A stretch of 64,000 bases of DNA, from positions 4,560,461 through 4,624,460 of the forward strand of contig NZ_OX365700.1 of NCBI RefSeq assembly GCF_947241125.1. The letters are read 5' to 3'. The notes under the pieces were generated by a model, which searched no databases, was not told the origin of the DNA, and saw only the letters and a program-made list of their open reading frames with translations. This document shows, piece after piece, positions 9,122 through 42,132 of this stretch (position 1 is its first letter; each line of letters starts with the position of its first letter). The DNA is from Nitrospira tepida (lineage in GTDB: Bacteria; Nitrospirota; Nitrospiria; Nitrospirales; Nitrospiraceae). Made by a program: the position numbers and the translations under genes.

Positions 9122-9292
9122 CACCCAGATGTTGCGGCGGAAGACACCTGTGCGGAAAAGACATGTTACACAGACGGAAGGACGGGCTGCAAACCACGTG
9201 GGAAGTGCTGAGTGCTCAGTGCTGGGTGCTGATGAATGGAGAAGAGGCGCGTTCGTGTTGGAGAACGATCCCCACCTTCACGCCTGCGCCGA

Positions 9293-11816: not shown

Positions 11817-11961
11817 CTAGGAGCCTGTCCGACATTGACTTTTCTACTGCGACGAACGATCTGCAGCCATCTGCGTCGTTCTCGGCCCGCAAAATCCTGG
11901 GCACCCATTGCTCTTCGACTTGCAATGGGTCAGCGAACCGCAATGTCGGACAGGCTCCTAG
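11817..11961. repeat. 145-bp palindromic element with 21-bp perfect inverted repeats (MITE-like)
   Basis: The left end 11817-11837 starts CTAGGAGCCTGTCCG and is the exact reverse complement of 11941-11961. The interior shows no ORF. The structure suggests a non-autonomous transposable element or large hairpin. It lies 42 bp upstream of the start of the secreted-protein gene at 11775. Confidence 0.7.
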
Positions 11962-12839: not shown

Positions 12840-12849
12840 GACATGCCTG

Positions 12850-12901
12850 CCTGCGTTCGCATGCTGTCCGACCGGCCTGCATTCGCATGCTGTCCGACCG
12901 G
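12850..12901. repeat. 26-bp tandem duplication
   Basis: Two adjacent copies (12850-12875, 12876-12901) of a unit starting CCTGC and ending GTCCGACCGG, differing at one position (G/A, sixth base). They lie just before the lipoprotein start, in its presumed promoter or leader. Confidence 0.85.
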
Positions 12902-13213: not shown

Positions 13214-13358
13214 GGAAGTGCTGAGTGATGCAGAACGCAGGGAGCAAGAAATTGAAGGTCTCCAGGCTGAAAACCTCCTGTTCGTGCTCAGCACTGAGCA
13301 CTCAGCACTCATCGCTCAGCACTGAAGGGACGGCACTCAGTCCTCAGCACTCAGCACC
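13214..13358. repeat. dispersed AGCACTCAGC repeat, copy B
   Basis: Contains several AGCACTCAGCACT units plus a core (TTGAAGGTCTCC, then GGCTGAAAA) that recurs inverted at 16378-16500. It fills the space between tRNA-His and pyrF and runs into the pyrF 3' end, contributing its stop codon. Confidence 0.8.
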
Positions 13359-14090
13359 TTTCCGCGCACTACGCGCGTCGAAGGCCCGCTGCATTTCGGC
13401 GAGGATGGCTTCGGCGGCGGCCCGCGGATCGGACGCATCCCTGATCGGACGGCCGACCACGAGATAATCCGACCCGGCCGCGATCGCCTGGGCCGGCGTC
13501 GTGGCCCTGGCATGGTCGCCGGTCTCGACTCCCGCCGGACGGATGCCGGGCGTGACGATCACTAACTTGTCTCCCACCCGCTGGCGGATCGCCTGCGGCT
13601 CCTCGCCCGACGCCACCACCCCTTCGCAGCCGACCTCGGCCGCCAAGGCCGCCCGGGCCGTGACGAGTTCCGCCACGCTGTGCTGGATGCCCATCTCACG
13701 CAGGTCCTGCGAGTCATAGTTGGTCAGCACGGTGACGGCCAGGATCTTCAGCGCGGAGTTCGGCACCTGGCTGCGCCCCCGCACGGCGGCGGTCAGGGCC
13801 TTGCGATTGGCGTGGACCGTCAGAAAATCCACCCCCATCATGGCGACTTGCGCGGTGGCCCGCCGGACGGTTTCTTCGATGTCCAGGAACTTCAAGTCGA
13901 GGAACACCCGCTTGCCCTGTTGGCGAAGCCGGTGGACGAACTCGGGTCCAGCGGCCGTGAACAGCTCAAGGCCGACCTTGACGAACGAGACCGATTCGCC
14001 GATTTTCTCCACCAGGCGGATCCCCGCCTCGGCGGACGGCACGTCGAGCGCCAGAATGAGCCGATCGCGAACCTGGAATTGAGCAGTCAT
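13344..14090 (-). CDS. pyrF: orotidine 5'-phosphate decarboxylase
   Basis: 248 aa from ATG 14090 (MTAQFQVRDRLILALDVPSA), with AAGGA about 11 nt upstream. It converts OMP to UMP, the last step of de novo pyrimidine synthesis, as a cytosolic TIM-barrel dimer. The hallmark active-site loop is visible as FLDLKFLDIEETVRRA (catalytic D-x-K-x-x-D), with ILALDVPS at the first strand and IVTPGIRP plus DYLVVGRPI at the phosphate-binding end. Length is usual for the bacterial type. The C-terminal residues KGAEC and the stop lie in a dispersed repeat, so the natural terminus may have been altered. Confidence 0.95.
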   Translation of the reverse strand: MTAQFQVRDRLILALDVPSAEAGIRLVEKIGESVSFVKVGLELFTAAGPEFVHRLRQQGKRVFLDLKFLDIEETVRRATAQVAMMGVDFLTVHANRKALTAAVRGRSQVPNSALKILAVTVLTNYDSQDLREMGIQHSVAELVTARAALAAEVGCEGVVASGEEPQAIRQRVGDKLVIVTPGIRPAGVETGDHARATTPAQAIAAGSDYLVVGRPIRDASDPRAAAEAILAEMQRAFDARSARKGAEC

Positions 14091-14244
14091 GAGTCCACGT
14101 TTCCTTCTTGGTGACAGATAGAGAATCAACCCACCGCAGGCCAACACAGACAGAATGGCGAGGCGGGCAGAGTACCCTTTCTTGACCCATCAATCAAGGC
14201 TGTGGTAAAAGGGTGATTCTTTTTCTCAGAAGGAGTCGCGAATC

Positions 14245-14520
14245 ATGCCACAGGTTCACAAATCGACGATCAGGCGCGCCCGTCAAGCGGAAACCCGCCG
14301 CGCTCGAAACCGCACCACCCTCAACACGGTCAAGGCCTTCATCAAGAAGACCCTCGCCGCGGTGGAGGAAAAAAAGGCGGATGAAGCGGCGACCGCGCTT
14401 CGCGAGGCCAGCTCGGCCATCGGCCGAGCCGCGGCCAAGGGAGTGATCAAGCGGAACACGGCGTCCCGCCGGATTTCGCGACTCACGCTTCGCGTCAACG
14501 GCCTGACCGCCGCCAAATAA
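14245..14520 (+). CDS. rpsT: 30S ribosomal protein S20
   Basis: 91 aa, very lysine/arginine/alanine-rich, with MPQVHKSTIRRARQAETRRA at the start and KGVIKRNTASRRISRLTLRV near the end, as in S20, which binds 16S rRNA during early 30S assembly. AGAAGGAG lies about 10 nt before the ATG. A short upstream region separates it from the divergent pyrF. Length matches the family (85-95 aa). Confidence 0.95.
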   Translation: MPQVHKSTIRRARQAETRRARNRTTLNTVKAFIKKTLAAVEEKKADEAATALREASSAIGRAAAKGVIKRNTASRRISRLTLRVNGLTAAK

Positions 14521-14523
14521 GCC

Positions 14524-14561
14524 AGCAGGGCATTGAACAAACCCGCCAGCTTTGTTCTCGG
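14524..14561. repeat. partial copy of a dispersed palindromic repeat
   Basis: GCAGGGCATTGAACAAAC followed by CCGCCAGCTTTGTTCTCG resembles the left arm of the element at 36333-36457. Only this arm is present. It lies just behind rpsT, and the rest of the 14521-14700 gap has no gene. Confidence 0.55.
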
Positions 14562-14700
14562 ATCTTGGTTTGGTCGTCATGCGTCAAGCGTCAGTCGTCA
14601 ATCGACTAACGATGAAGAAGACAGGATGCGAAGACGTACCGTCAATACGTTTGACGAGTGACGGATTTCCGTCCTTTTGCTCGCTACAGCCTCGAAGGCG

Positions 14701-15696
14701 TCATCCGCGGCAGAGGGAGAGCAGCAGCGTTTCCATGACGCGCCTGCCCGACCCGGCGCTTCCGCCCTTCAGTTTCGAATCCGTATCCACAAACAGCTCG
14801 AACGCCCGGCGCAGGTGCGGGTCGGAAAAGCGGCCGAAAAAGCTCTTCACCCGGTAGGGCTCGATCCCGAGCGGTCTGGAGACTTCGCCCGCGCTTTTGC
14901 CCTGGGCGAACAGATCCTTCGTCTTCCAGAGACGCCGGTATTGCCAGACCAACGCGCCGAGAATCCGCAACGGGGCTTCCCCCGCCTCCAGGTTCCGCGC
15001 CAAAATCTCCAACGCCCGGCGGCAATCCCGTGCTTCGATGGCTTTGGTGAGGTCGAACACCGAGGCGCCCGGCTCGATCCCGCGCGCCGCCTCCACCTCC
15101 GCCGCCCCCGCCGCCGCTCCAGCCGACGTGGTCAAGGCCAGCTTTTCCAAGTCCCGTTTGATCAATGCCAGCGAGTGACCGGCTGATTCGCGGAGCACCG
15201 CGATCCCCTCATCGGTGATCTTCAAGTTCAACCGCGCGGCTTCACTTCGAATCCATTCCGTGAGCGCCGCGCCGTTCAACGGACCACAGTCCACGACCAA
15301 GGCGCGCTTCACCAATGCCTGCGTCCACTTCAATCGCTTGTCGAGCTTCTCCGCCACCAGGATCAGCGCGGTGGTCTCGCAGGGGTCGGCCAGGTAGGCA
15401 AGCCAGGCTTCATTGTCCCGTGCCGTGATCTTGTCCGCCTGTTTGACGATGACCAGGCGGCGGGGGGCGAACACCGGGATTTCCCGCGCGGCGGTCAAGA
15501 TTGAGGAGGCGCCGTCTTCGTCGGCATAGAGCTGCGCACAATTGAACACGTCGTCCGTGCCGGCGCCCAAGAGCTGGTCCTTGAGCGTCACGACCGCTGT
15601 TCGCCTGAGCTCCTCTTCTTCGCCTTCGACCAGACAGAGCGGGGGGATGGCTTCGCGTTGGAGATAGTGAGCGAGGGTCAGGGCCTTCACGATCAT
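14701..15696 (-). CDS. holA: DNA polymerase III delta subunit
   Basis: 331 aa. Delta opens the beta sliding clamp as part of the clamp loader. Visible are the N-terminal PPLCLVEGEEEELRRTAVVT, VPVFAPRRLVIVK-like strand (IPVFAPRRLVIVKQADKI), TTALILVAEKLDKRLKW, and the C-terminal helical part LGALVWQYRRLWKTKDLFAQ ending in TDSKLKGGSAGS. The last is the typical DNA_pol3_delta C-terminus. It is 59 nt from lptE; the order leuS-lptE-holA on one strand suggests a shared transcript and is a common arrangement in bacteria. Confidence 0.93.
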   Translation of the reverse strand: MIVKALTLAHYLQREAIPPLCLVEGEEEELRRTAVVTLKDQLLGAGTDDVFNCAQLYADEDGASSILTAAREIPVFAPRRLVIVKQADKITARDNEAWLAYLADPCETTALILVAEKLDKRLKWTQALVKRALVVDCGPLNGAALTEWIRSEAARLNLKITDEGIAVLRESAGHSLALIKRDLEKLALTTSAGAAAGAAEVEAARGIEPGASVFDLTKAIEARDCRRALEILARNLEAGEAPLRILGALVWQYRRLWKTKDLFAQGKSAGEVSRPLGIEPYRVKSFFGRFSDPHLRRAFELFVDTDSKLKGGSAGSGRRVMETLLLSLCRG

Positions 15697-15755
15697 GGCG
15701 GCAACGATCTCTTTCCGGAGAAGGTCAGGCGGGACATGGATGGAACCCCATCATG

Positions 15756-16442
15756 TCATCGCGCGCCCGGCAGCATCGGGACAAACTCGGGCGGGGCCTC
15801 GGTGGGCTTGATCCTGCCCTCCCGCACATCGTCGATGAAGAGCTGAAAGCGTGCCGAGAGGTCGGCCGCCACCATCCTGCCCGCCTGTTCGACCGCGCGG
15901 TTTTGCAGCACGCGATTGAACTGGAGATCGCCCGTGACGAAGAATTCCGACATTCCCTTTGCGGTTTGCACCCAGACGACCTTGTGGCTGCGCACATCCT
16001 CGGCCTGCACCATGACCAGGGCCTCCACGCGGCTTTCCAAGGTGGTGGATTGTGTAAAGCTTAACGTCGGGATCAGGATGGAAAGAATGGTCCCTTTGAG
16101 GACATAATCCGCCGTTTCCGTTCCTCCGACCACTTGGGCCCCGCTGCTGGTCGCAAACTCCTGACGGAGATAGTTGGAGTACTTGATTTCGAGATTGGGC
16201 TCGAAGCTCCCGTTGCGGAGATTCACGATGCTGAGCCGCGGCACATGCTCGCCCGGTTTGACCTGCGCGGCAGGCTGGGCCGTGCCGCCGATCGTCGGCC
16301 CCGGTCCCTCCACGCCGAACTGGTAGCCGCAGCCGGCGAGCAGCGCCAACGCGACGGCCAGCGCGGTGCCAGCCAAGAGTGCTGAGTGCTCAGTGCTCAG
16401 TGCTGAGTACGAACAAAAGGGTTTCAGCCCGGAGACCTTCAA
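15756..16442 (-). CDS. lptE: LPS-assembly lipoprotein LptE
   Basis: 228 aa from a TTG start at 16442, preceded by AAGGAG with 7-nt spacing; no ATG or GTG is available before the lipobox. The signal segment ALAVALALLAGC precedes CGYQFG. The mature part has VPRLSIVNLRNGSFEPNLEI and LRQEFATSSGAQVVGGTETA followed by DYVLKGTI, the LptE pattern. LptE is the outer-membrane lipoprotein that plugs LptD and delivers LPS to the cell surface. Unusually, the first 20 residues (LKVSGLKPFCSYSALSTEHS) are encoded by the dispersed AGCACTCAGC repeat, which also supplies the start codon and ribosome-binding site. Confidence 0.85.
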   Translation of the reverse strand: MKVSGLKPFCSYSALSTEHSALLAGTALAVALALLAGCGYQFGVEGPGPTIGGTAQPAAQVKPGEHVPRLSIVNLRNGSFEPNLEIKYSNYLRQEFATSSGAQVVGGTETADYVLKGTILSILIPTLSFTQSTTLESRVEALVMVQAEDVRSHKVVWVQTAKGMSEFFVTGDLQFNRVLQNRAVEQAGRMVAADLSARFQLFIDDVREGRIKPTEAPPEFVPMLPGAR

Positions 16443-16500
16443 TTATTTTCTCCTTATGTGCTGCATCACTCAGCACTCAGAACCCAGCACTTAGCACTTT
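16378..16500. repeat. dispersed AGCACTCAGC repeat, copy C
   Basis: AGTGCTGAGTGCTCAGTGCT units at the left, the shared core (reverse complement of TTGAAGGTCTCC and neighbours) in the middle, and CAGCACTCAG units at the right, ending against the leuS stop. Orientation is opposite to copy B. It covers the lptE start. Confidence 0.8.
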
Positions 16501-19758: not shown

Positions 19759-20445
19759 TCAGATGTCCGTGAGCGTCGAGAAATGCTCGATCGAATGGAA
19801 GGTGGCGGATGGCTCAGGGGCGAGCTGGGAGCTGGATTTGGACCGATGGTACAGGTAGGCCACGCCAAAGCCGTGCGCGGCCCTGAGGCACCCCTCGTCA
19901 TCGTCTATATATAAGGAGCGGGCTGGATCGAAGCCGACGAGCTGTTGGCAGGCCGGCCAGTATTCCGGCCGCATCTTCAAGCAGCCGACCTCGAACGCAT
20001 TGACGATCCGATCGACATGCCGATCCAACCCCGTCTTCGCGACCTTGACGGCCACCCCGGCCTCATGCGCGTTGGTCACGATCGTCACGCGCTTGCCGCG
20101 TCGCCGCAGCGCCCTGAGAAACGGCAGGGCATCCGGAAGAAAGTCGATCAAGTGATCCAGCTCCCGGTGCAGGGCGACAACATCCAGCCCCACCCGGCCG
20201 GTCCAGTAGTGGAGATCGGTCCAGGCCAATTCACCCTCCACCGACCGATACATCGCCATGAGCCTGTTCCGGGCCTCCTCGAAGGAGAGCCGGTGCAGGG
20301 CGGCATAGCGGCGCGGCAGCTCCTCCTCGAAGAAATAATTGTCGAAATGCCGATCGAGCAGGGTGCCGTCCATGTCGAGCAGGACATCGTCGATTTCGTC
20401 CCACACGAGAGAGTGCTGAGTGCTGGGTGCTGAGGGCTGAGGCAT
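19759..20445 (-). CDS. yrfG: HAD-family phosphatase, YrfG-like (GMP/IMP nucleotidase)
   Basis: 228 aa from ATG 20445. HAD motif I is LLDMDGTLLDRHFDNYFFEE (the FDNYF extension is typical of YrfG), motif II is VTIVTNAHEAG, motif III lysine in EVGCLKMRPEYW, and motif IV SLYIDDDEGCL. Family knowledge points to a 5'-nucleotidase acting on GMP/IMP. The N-terminal residues PQPSAPSTQHS are translated from a dispersed repeat and are nearly identical to those of the divergently transcribed Der. The catalytic domain begins right after. Family sure, substrate less so. Confidence 0.85.
   Translation of the reverse strand: MPQPSAPSTQHSLVWDEIDDVLLDMDGTLLDRHFDNYFFEEELPRRYAALHRLSFEEARNRLMAMYRSVEGELAWTDLHYWTGRVGLDVVALHRELDHLIDFLPDALPFLRALRRRGKRVTIVTNAHEAGVAVKVAKTGLDRHVDRIVNAFEVGCLKMRPEYWPACQQLVGFDPARSLYIDDDEGCLRAAHGFGVAYLYHRSKSSSQLAPEPSATFHSIEHFSTLTDI
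20411..20442. repeat. dispersed AGCACTCAGC repeat, copy D
   Basis: GAGTGCTGAGTGCTGGGTGC followed by TGAGGGCTGAGG. It lies inside the first codons of the yrfG-like gene, immediately after its ATG. Confidence 0.75.
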
Positions 20446-20537
20446 AAAGAAAGTATAGCGAAGGTCCCGCCGGAAGACGAGGCGCATTGTGTTTGCCAAA
20501 ATTCCTGTGTTACGGTCCGGCCATCCCGTTCTCATTC

Positions 20538-21899
20538 ATGTCCATGACTGCCCGCTCAGCACCCAGTACCCAGCACTCAGCACTTCTTCCGACCGTCGCC
20601 ATTATCGGCCGGCCGAACGTGGGGAAGTCCACGCTGTTCAACCGGATTCTCGGCCATCGCTCCGCCATCGTGGACGACGTGCCCGGGGTCACGCGCGATC
20701 GCAACTACGCCGAGGCCTCCTTTCGGGGACGTCCGTTCAGATTGGTGGATACGGGCGGGCTCGACCCGAGCGCCAACGAAGGGATGTTGGCCCTGATCCG
20801 GCACCAGACGCAAGTGGCGATCGCGGAGGCCGACGTGCTGATCTTCGTGATGGACGGGCGGGACGGGGTCACGCCGACCGACGAAGCGGTGGTCTCGTTG
20901 CTGCGCGGGATCAAGAAACCCGTCTACTACGCGGTCAATAAGATCGACACGGCCAAGGCCGAGCCGCTGGTCGCCGATTTCTACCGCTTGGGACTGGACC
21001 ACCTCTATCCGGTCTCCGCCGAGCACGGGATCGGGGTGGATGATGTGCTGGAGGCAGTCTACCCCCACCTCCCCCAAGAACCTCCCGAAGGATCGTTGGC
21101 CGATGTGCCGCGCGTCGCGATCGTCGGGCGACCCAACGTCGGAAAATCGACGTTGGTCAACGCCGTCCTCGGACAAGACCGTTGCGTGGTCAGCGACATT
21201 CCCGGCACGACGCGCGATCCCATCGACAGCCTCGCGACCTTGGACGGCCGGCAGTACATCTTCACGGACACGGCCGGCATCAGACGGCGCGGCCGCATCG
21301 AACGGGGAGTCGAAGGGTACAGCGTAGCCCGGTCCTTGCGCGCGCTGGGGCGTTCGGATGTCGCCGTGCTGCTGCTGGATGCGGAGGAAGGGCTGACGGA
21401 ACAGGACACGAAAATTGCCGGATTGGTCCTCCGGCAGGGCCGCGCCTGCATTCTGCTGGTCAACAAATGGGATCTGCGGGCGCACGAGGCCGGGGCCAAG
21501 CAAGCCTACGAGGCCGACCTGCACCGCCGGTTTTCCTTCCTGACCTGGGCGCCTGTGCTCTATGCCTCCGCCCTGAAGCCGGATTCGTTGCGTCCGCTGT
21601 TTCCGTTGATCGAGCAGGTCGTGGCCTCGTTCACCAACCGGATTCCGACCGGCCCGCTGAATCAGTTTTTCCAATCGGTGCTGGAAAGCCATCCACTGCC
21701 GATGCGCAAGGGCCGCATCACGAAGACGGCCCGCTCGGCCTTTATCACCCAGGTCGCCACCAAGCCGCCCGTGTTTGCCCTATTCGTCGGCCATCCGGAA
21801 GGGATCACCGCCGCTTATCTCCGTTTTCTGGAGAACCGGCTGCGCGAGCAATTCCCGTTGATCGGCACTCCCGTTCGCATCTTGGTCAGAAAGAAGTGA
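20538..21899 (+). CDS. der: ribosome assembly GTPase Der (EngA)
   Basis: 453 aa from ATG 20538 (20544 is an alternative ATG). Two tandem G domains define Der: G1 GRPNVGKSTLFNRI with DTGG and NKID (first domain), then GRPNVGKSTLVNAVLG with DTAGIRRRGRI and NKWD (second domain), and a C-terminal KH-like domain (ITKTARSAFITQVATKPPVF, then FLENRLREQFPLIGTPVRI). Der is an essential GTPase in 50S subunit maturation. The residues before the first G1 motif (RSAPSTQHSALL) come from a dispersed repeat; Der proteins normally start a few residues before this motif. No clear Shine-Dalgarno is visible. Confidence 0.95.
   Translation: MSMTARSAPSTQHSALLPTVAIIGRPNVGKSTLFNRILGHRSAIVDDVPGVTRDRNYAEASFRGRPFRLVDTGGLDPSANEGMLALIRHQTQVAIAEADVLIFVMDGRDGVTPTDEAVVSLLRGIKKPVYYAVNKIDTAKAEPLVADFYRLGLDHLYPVSAEHGIGVDDVLEAVYPHLPQEPPEGSLADVPRVAIVGRPNVGKSTLVNAVLGQDRCVVSDIPGTTRDPIDSLATLDGRQYIFTDTAGIRRRGRIERGVEGYSVARSLRALGRSDVAVLLLDAEEGLTEQDTKIAGLVLRQGRACILLVNKWDLRAHEAGAKQAYEADLHRRFSFLTWAPVLYASALKPDSLRPLFPLIEQVVASFTNRIPTGPLNQFFQSVLESHPLPMRKGRITKTARSAFITQVATKPPVFALFVGHPEGITAAYLRFLENRLREQFPLIGTPVRILVRKK
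20553..20586. repeat. dispersed AGCACTCAGC repeat, copy E
   Basis: CTCAGCACCCAGTACCCAGC then ACTCAGCACTTC. It lies inside the first codons of der, opposite in orientation to copy D, from which it is separated by the 110-bp divergent intergenic region. Confidence 0.75.
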
Positions 21900-32199: not shown

Positions 32200-32657
32200 C
32201 GGCCGCGCAAGCCAACGACGAGGATCGAGAATGTTGCCAACCAGCGACTACGCGGCCACAAGTCCGACTTCTCCGCTGAAACCCTTCTCATTCGCCGGAC
32301 GATCGGTTGAGTCTCGCGATGTGCCGATCCGCATCCGCTGCGGCGGACCTGTCAGTTCGTCATCGATTTTTGAACCTCGGAGATAAGACAACAGGCTTCA
32401 GACGCGACGCTCCTTCTCCGTCTCTCTCGTGCCCCACGATTGACGGTCCGACAGCCGTTCACCCTTGTCGCTGTCCCAAACCTTAAGCCCTTCCACCCCC
32501 GATTACGGTTTCATCAAAACGCATCCGGCCTGGCTTCCGCTTCCGCCCGAAGTGTTGACGGGCGCGCCGCTCGCCGCTAGACTGAGGGCACATTCGCTCG
32601 TACAGGTGATGGAGTTCACCGGAACCGTCCTTGGTCCGTCGGGATCGGGGACTGATA

Positions 32658-32731
32658 ACTCCTACCGCTCGGTAGGAGGTGTGTCTCGGCAATCAACTCC
32701 TACCGGCGCAGGCCGGTAGGAGTTTTTTTTT
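32658..32731 (+). terminator. tandem hairpins ending in a rho-independent terminator; attenuator-like leader
   Basis: Hairpin 1 pairs CTCCTACC with GGTAGGAG across a 4-nt loop (32659-32678). Hairpin 2 pairs AACTCCTACCGGC with GCCGGTAGGAGTT (32695-32724) and is followed by an unbroken T run to 32731. The right arm of hairpin 1 is also complementary to the left arm of hairpin 2, so a third, mutually exclusive pairing is possible. The terminator ends 16 bp before an ABC transporter gene, which would make it a transcription attenuator. The rest of 32200-32657 shows no gene. Confidence 0.75.
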
Positions 32732-41914: not shown

Positions 41915-42132
41915 CTAGCCTGCATTATTCATGAACGCTTCTGCTGCAATCGCGGATTCGCCGCTGCGACAAGCTGGCATGCAGTTTCACGGTCTGCCAG
42001 CGGGCGGGCTCGCCACTCGGTCGGTTCGACGTACTGTTTCAAGTACGCCTCATTCCCTCGCGGCTCCACGCGCCCGTCTCGCTTGGCGACTGCGCGATTT
42101 CGCGACGAACCGTCATGAATAATGCAGGCTAG
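41915..42132. repeat. 218-bp MITE-like element with perfect 20-bp terminal inverted repeats
   Basis: The left terminus 41915-41934 is CTAGCCTGCATTATTCATGA, and 42113-42132 is its exact reverse complement. The interior has no plausible gene. No clear target duplication. It fills the gap between the transglycosylase and nuclease genes. Its termini differ from the 21-bp termini of the element at 11817. Confidence 0.8.

What the first reader, a model, noticed from the sequence alone, without database searches (positions are those of the whole stretch)
13251..16442. Larger repeat unit with a shared 60-bp core in opposite orientations
Copies B and C share not only the AGCACT units but a core with TTGAAGGTCTCC and GGCTGAAA, and both have a purine-rich GGAG upstream of TTG. 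The full repeat therefore resembles a tiny translatable cassette (LKVS(G/R)LK...SALST(E/Q)HS), one used as the lptE start.
Basis: seen in the sequence. Interest (0 to 1): 0.6.

Follow-up and report, generated by a model that had tools for sequence, protein, structure and literature searches.

The report
Inverted heptamer-array pairs between bacterial genes
The two look-alike stretches are members of a genome-wide class of gap-filling repeats, each made of two mirror-image blocks of a 7-letter word between neighbouring genes; one of them has been drafted as the start of the lptE gene, but the shared middle part is a one-off local copy, not a general 'mini-gene'.

Summary
In detail: 13217-13317 and 16377-16477 are a 101-nt inverted repeat, 85% identical, containing TTGAAGGTCTCCNGGCTGAAA and a GGAG-like site before TTG. 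The core occurs only twice in the 4.73-Mb genome and in none of 174 same-family genomes. What is shared widely is its frame: two arrays of the heptamer CAGCACT, phase-locked, modally about 31 nt, always in the order AGTGCTG-spacer-CAGCACT. This genome also carries a second family, CGTCANN, with its own fixed order. Pairs fill gaps between co-oriented or convergent genes. Of 34 distinct spacers, only B and C share sequence. Orthologous junctions in relatives carry inverted pairs built from other 7- or 9-nt words, so repeat families replace one another at one site.
At copy C the spacer supplies lptE's Shine-Dalgarno and TTG start. In one related genus the array-encoded lptE N-terminus shows third-position excess, so arrays can become coding. 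B is not coding, and B versus C shows no codon bias (4/2/2). A general translatable cassette is not supported; exaptation at lptE is. Arms show no mirrored variants and no G-U tolerance, which favours a DNA-level MITE/REPIN-like element. Closest published case: Xanthomonas GGGAATC heptamers. New variant of a known kind.

The parts
13217..13230 (-). Copy B: short array AGTGCTGAGTGATG (CAGCACT unit on the - strand), one arm of the pair
13231..13286 (+). Copy B spacer with GGGAG (13240-13244) and TTG (13252-13254); no gene downstream, the frame runs antisense into pyrF
13287..13323 (+). Copy B second arm, CTCAGCACTGAGCACTCAGCACTCATCGCTCAGCACT
13333..13357 (+). Further CAGCACT array next to the pyrF 3' end
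16377..16408 (-). Copy C arm encoded inside lptE codons (reads ACTCAGCACTGAGCACTGAGCACTCAGCACTC on the - strand)
16409..16463 (-). Copy C spacer: AAGGAG (16455-16450) and TTG start of lptE (16442-16440)
16464..16498 (+). Copy C other arm, 3 nt from the leuS stop codon (16502)
15756..16442 (-). lptE (LPS-assembly lipoprotein), N-terminus encoded by copy C
   Evidence: Pfam PF04390, 30.3 bits; gene call starts at 16442
20411..20584 (.). Third CAGCACT pair in the window, between the HAD-like gene (-) and der/engA (+); der appears to be translated through the array (no ATG/GTG/TTG between array and PTVAIIGRPNVGKS)
9204..9232 (-). Unpaired CAGCACT array
14575..14666 (+). Inverted pair of the second heptamer family CGTCANN between rpsT and holA

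Best explanation
B and C are two members of an intergenic repeat class built from a pair of inverted, phase-locked heptamer arrays (about 4 units, modally 30-32 nt) around an otherwise unique spacer of about 10-110 nt. The class behaves like a small DNA element with terminal inverted repeats: fixed arm polarity per family, sharp outer ends, unit-wise replacement at a site by other heptamer families, unpaired arms as relics. It sits in gaps between genes and avoids divergent promoters. Copy C lies in the leuS-lptE gap, where its spacer now supplies lptE's ribosome-binding site and TTG start. B carries the same spacer in opposite orientation in the pyrF-tRNA gap, most likely through recombination or gene conversion between array pairs 3 kb apart. 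Shown: architecture, polarity, copy numbers, the two-copy core, family turnover at orthologous junctions, codon selection on an array-encoded lptE start in relatives. Inferred: a MITE/REPIN-like mode of spread, and the conversion event and its direction.
For: Polarity: 15/15 CAGCACT pair calls (14 distinct) and 20/20 CGTCANN pairs in this genome, and 15/15 CAGCACT pairs in one-per-genome loci of relatives. Arms phase-locked with modal length 30-32 nt in both sets. Intergenic lag-7 autocorrelation z=9.8 in an unbiased 400-kb sample, with 16 inverted pairs against 0.7 in shuffles; lag-7 z is 1.2 and -0.5 in two relatives' samples. CAGCACT arrays in 118/175 family genomes, reversed control almost nil. 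Gene context: 20 co-oriented, 7 convergent, 1 divergent among pairs with both neighbours within 300 nt. Spacers unshared except B/C. The leuS-lptE junction carries CAGCACT, TCTCGCnnn, CTTGCCC, TTTTGCA, TAACTGT-like and other inverted pairs in different relatives; the tree needs 24 type changes over 69 genomes. pyrF-tRNA and ilvB-ilvH show the same swapping. At one shared site (L070/L245) arms are kept while the spacer is unalignable. Arms pair no better with their own partner than with arms of other loci (p=0.56) and show no excess of G-U-preserving changes, 27 versus 26, which argues against selection on RNA pairing.
Against: No transposase is linked: 8 Y1-transposase matches in this genome, none with CAGCACT or CGTCAAT arrays in the 1.5-kb flanks. 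No clean empty site with target duplication was seen: at leuS-lptE the closest relative lacks the array but also differs in the native N-terminus. Unlike MITEs or REPINs, spacers are not shared. Recurrence at the same junction in unrelated lineages is higher than the roughly 10% of gaps occupied in this genome, which a purely random element would not predict.
Confidence: 0.6

Rival explanations
1. The pairs are functional intercistronic RNA hairpins (RNase III-type processing, mRNA protection or translational coupling by bringing stop and start together); the heptamers are only a convenient way to build a stem.
For: leuS-lptE junction folds far better than shuffles (27/68 z<-2) and than matched control stretches (median z -2.08 vs 0.03, Wilcoxon p=1.6e-4). 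The same junctions carry stems made of different repeats in different lineages. Arms abut stop and start codons and are kept while the spacer turns over.
Against: No mirrored variants between partner arms, no G-U-tolerant substitution bias, covariation term only -0.31 kcal/mol with 2 of 14 pairs showing two-sided changes. Many arrays are unpaired. Pairing follows automatically from both arms being the same repeat.
Confidence: 0.25
2. One reading: a dispersed, translatable mini-cassette (SD + TTG + LKVS...STQHS) under selection for translation.
For: Both copies keep a GGAG-like site and TTG. C is used by lptE. Relatives show codon-position bias in an array-encoded lptE start.
Against: Core is a two-copy sequence. 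B has no downstream gene. B/C differences are 4/2/2 by codon position. Other spacers lack the core.
Confidence: 0.04
3. Plain microsatellite expansion by polymerase slippage, with inverted pairing arising by chance or by template switching.
For: Heptamers are the commonest long simple repeat class in many bacteria (survey cited in PMC4679880). Unit number varies.
Against: Fixed pair polarity in 50/50 pair calls over two families and many genomes, fixed inner and outer phase, and modal 4-unit length are not expected of slippage alone.
Confidence: 0.1

Closest known systems
GGGNATC heptamer repeats of Xanthomonas (and Nostoc) (Rehm et al. 2015, PMC4692102)
   Same: Heptamers, preference for four units, intergenic, within 50 bp of stop or start codons, under-represented between divergent genes, 70 and 75 inverted pairs in two Xanthomonas genomes always in convergent orientation, pair type usually conserved between species.
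   Different: There explained by G-quadruplex formation. The CAGCACT and CGTCANN units here have no G-tract, yet show the same length preference, polarity and placement. Here several word families coexist and replace each other at orthologous junctions.
TAACTGA repeats of marine Beggiatoaceae (MacGregor 2015, PMC4679880)
   Same: Intergenic heptamer arrays, many just upstream of start codons; frame and stop content discussed.
   Different: Almost all direct arrays (169 direct, one 'indirect'); no inverted pairs with a spacer, no junction-by-junction family replacement.
REPINs / REP-RAYT (Bertels & Rainey 2011, PMC3116915)
   Same: Inverted doublets with fixed polarity, singlets as relics, extragenic, hairpin-forming, lineage-specific families.
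   Different: Arms here are tandem heptamers rather than a REP palindrome, spacers are unique, and no RAYT gene is flanked by the arrays.
Short tandemly repeated repetitive (STRR) heptamers of heterocystous cyanobacteria (own knowledge)
   Same: Intergenic heptamer arrays.
   Different: Not tested here; known to me as direct arrays.

Membership tests
Xanthomonas-type inverted heptamer pairs (Rehm 2015) | 7-nt unit with preference for about four units | tested here: met
   Modal arm length 30-32 nt
Xanthomonas-type inverted heptamer pairs (Rehm 2015) | Pairs always in one relative orientation | tested here: met
   15/15, 20/20 and 15/15
Xanthomonas-type inverted heptamer pairs (Rehm 2015) | Close to stop/start codons, rare between divergent genes | tested here: met
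   20 co-oriented, 7 convergent, 1 divergent
Xanthomonas-type inverted heptamer pairs (Rehm 2015) | G-tract unit able to form G-quadruplex | tested here: not met
   CAGCACT/AGTGCTG and CGTCANN have no GGG (sequence)
REPIN | Inverted doublet of a lineage-specific short sequence with spacer | tested here: met
REPIN | Conserved spacer/whole-unit homology among copies | tested here: not met
   1 of 34 spacers shared
REPIN | Associated RAYT (Y1) transposase flanked by the repeat | tested here: not met
   8 Y1 matches, no CAGCACT or CGTCAAT arrays in flanks
MITE | Terminal inverted repeats with sharp outer ends | tested here: met
   Outer end at AGCACT in most arms
MITE | Target-site duplication / clean empty site | tested here: inconclusive
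   No clean empty site among the junctions compared
Translatable mini-gene | Third-position excess among copies | tested here: not met
   B vs C 4/2/2; met only for the orthologous lptE start in one related genus

The most novel reading that the evidence does not exclude
Certain gene junctions are under selection (or are hotspots) for an intercistronic palindrome whatever its sequence: lineages keep rebuilding the stem from whichever 7- or 9-nt repeat family is active in their genome, and the same arrays are then recruited as translation starts and signal-peptide codons of the next gene (lptE, possibly der).
Probability: 0.25. Interest if true: 0.8.

Novelty: new variant of a known kind. Interest (0 to 1): 0.55.

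Why it matters
The four-unit preference and fixed convergent pairing of bacterial heptamer repeats were attributed to G-quadruplex formation. Here the same architecture occurs with two units that cannot form quadruplexes, so another rule must set it. The swapping of whole inverted pairs at orthologous operon junctions, and the recruitment of an array as the start of an essential envelope gene, give concrete sites to test how such repeats spread and what they do to the genes they separate.

Tried and rejected
Core as a dispersed family: scans of the own genome, 174 family genomes and 84,980 species' genomes gave only B, C and scattered chance-like matches without arrays. Known RNA family: nothing from Rfam at the repeat. 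RAYT mobilisation: no arrays beside any Y1 transposase match. Hairpin covariation by own-versus-swapped arms, alignment and G-U tolerance: negative or weak. One pair count with a hand-written structure failed for length and was replaced by RNAalifold. Direction of copying between B and C: the closest relative keeps a decayed AGTGCTG-like array after pyrF but no match to the core at either site, so direction stays open. A plasmid search with leuS was uninformative.

Full report
Observation. Copies B (13217-13317) and C (16377-16477) are a 101-nt inverted repeat with 85% identity. C finds B at E=1.5e-26 in the whole genome. The core TGAAGGTCTCCNGGCTGAAA occurs twice in the window and never in shuffles. 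Both copies have a GGAG-like site 7 nt before TTG.

What is copied and what is not. The core exists only in these two places in the 4.73-Mb genome. In 174 other genomes of the same family there is one isolated 2-mismatch match. Exact matches to an 18-base version in 84,980 species are scattered over unrelated phyla, and none lies by a CAGCACT array. What is dispersed is the frame around the core: arrays of CAGCACT. I found about 40 sites in this genome, and arrays in 118 of 175 family genomes with an almost empty reversed control.

Anatomy of the class. Arrays occur singly or as inverted pairs. Arms have fixed phase, ACT(CAGCACT)n, with a modal length of 30-32 nt both here and in relatives. 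Pairs always have the order AGTGCTG-spacer-CAGCACT: 15/15 calls here (14 distinct pairs) and 15/15 in one-per-genome loci of relatives. A 400-kb unbiased sample of this genome shows a lag-7 autocorrelation in intergenic DNA (z=9.8, also at lags 14 and 21) and 16 strong inverted pairs against 0.7 in shuffles; the lag-7 signal is absent from the samples of two relatives. About half of these strong pairs belong to a second family, CGTCANN; a dedicated scan gives 20/20 CGTCANN pairs in that family's own fixed order, with similar arm length. Of 28 pairs with both neighbours within 300 nt, 20 lie between co-oriented genes, 7 between convergent and 1 between divergent genes, usually within a few tens of bases of the stop or start codon. 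Among 34 spacers only B and C share sequence.

Evolution at fixed junctions. The order leuS-lptE-holA-rpsT-pyrF-tRNA seems kept in relatives: pyrF lies about 2 kb from lptE in each genome compared, with the tRNA beyond it. At leuS-lptE the relatives carry inverted pairs, but of different words: CAGCACT, a TCTCGC nonamer, CTTGCCC, TTTTGCA, TAACTGT-like, TTACCTT and others; some have none. I assigned these types by eye. On a LeuS C-terminal tree the types change at least 24 times over 69 genomes, and close sisters (G160/G158, G081/G082) differ in type. The junction folds better than shuffles (27 of 68 with z<-2) and better than matched control stretches (median z -2.08 against 0.03, p=1.6e-4). 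The pyrF-tRNA, ilvB-ilvH and a third junction show similar replacement. At one site shared with the closest relative the arms are kept while the spacer has become unalignable.

Translation. In copy C the spacer supplies AAGGAG and TTG, and the arm is read as codons of a lipoprotein signal; Pfam confirms LptE. In six genomes of one related genus with an ungapped CAGCACT junction, the reading starts at a GTG in the left array by inspection. Variable columns there are 16/13/27 by codon position (Fisher p=0.0014), and the right arm has no second-position change. So an array can be a genuine coding start. Between B and C themselves, however, the first 66 nt differ 4/2/2 by codon position, and B's frame runs antisense into pyrF. 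The der gene at 20538 is a probable second case: no start codon lies between the array and its G-domain.

Mechanism. Fixed polarity per family, phase-locked ends, relic single arms and whole-unit replacement look like a small element with inverted ends. Support for RNA-level selection is weak: arms pair equally well with partners from other loci (p=0.56), pair-keeping and pair-breaking transitions are equal (27 and 26), and alignment covariation is small. Against a standard REPIN or MITE: spacers are unique, no Y1 transposase is flanked by CAGCACT or CGTCAAT arrays, and I saw no clean empty site. B/C spacer sharing is best read as conversion or duplication between two array pairs 3 kb apart. 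A decayed array after pyrF in the closest relative suggests the B site is old, but direction is not resolved.

Known relatives. Rehm et al. (PMC4692102) describe GGGAATC heptamers in Xanthomonas with four-unit preference, 70-75 convergent inverted pairs per genome and the same placement, and attribute this to G-quadruplexes. MacGregor (PMC4679880) describes TAACTGA direct arrays. No paper in the library prints this array as a bacterial repeat or its STQHSAL peptide; the single hit was a fungal paper. The present class shares the Xanthomonas architecture without G-tracts, hence 'new variant of a known kind'.

Limits. Gene starts come from a simple codon-usage caller I wrote. The recurrence of pairs at the same junctions was noticed at junctions chosen because this genome has a pair there, so a genome-wide survey is needed.

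Noticed in passing
41915-42132: Long inverted repeat (48-nt ends CTAGCCTGCATTATTCATGAACGCTTCTGCTGC...; 122-nt interior), with similar copies elsewhere in the genome (L263, L257, L086): looks like a separate MITE family.
   Followed up: no
L271:2742, L281:15710, L282:8665: Another hairpin family, (C)AGGATGTTCAAAA...TTTTCAACATCCT(G), loop of about 84 nt, shared between this genome and relative G017.
   Followed up: no
20411-20584: The essential GTPase Der seems to be translated through an array (MSMTARSAPSTQHSALLPTVAIIGRP), and the divergent HAD-like gene may be too.
   Followed up: partly
12849-12901: Two tandem copies of a 26-mer containing GCATGCTGTCCGACCGG just upstream of a gene start.
   Followed up: no
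11817-11961: Perfect 21-nt inverted repeat CTAGGAGCCTGTCCGACATTG with 103 nt between the arms.
   Followed up: no
32596-32671: Fluoride riboswitch, Rfam RF01734, 46.9 bits.
   Followed up: no
leuS-lptE junctions of relatives (L134, L139, L160, L178, L187): Inverted arrays with a 9-nt period (TCTCGCnnn) instead of 7 at the same junction.
   Followed up: partly
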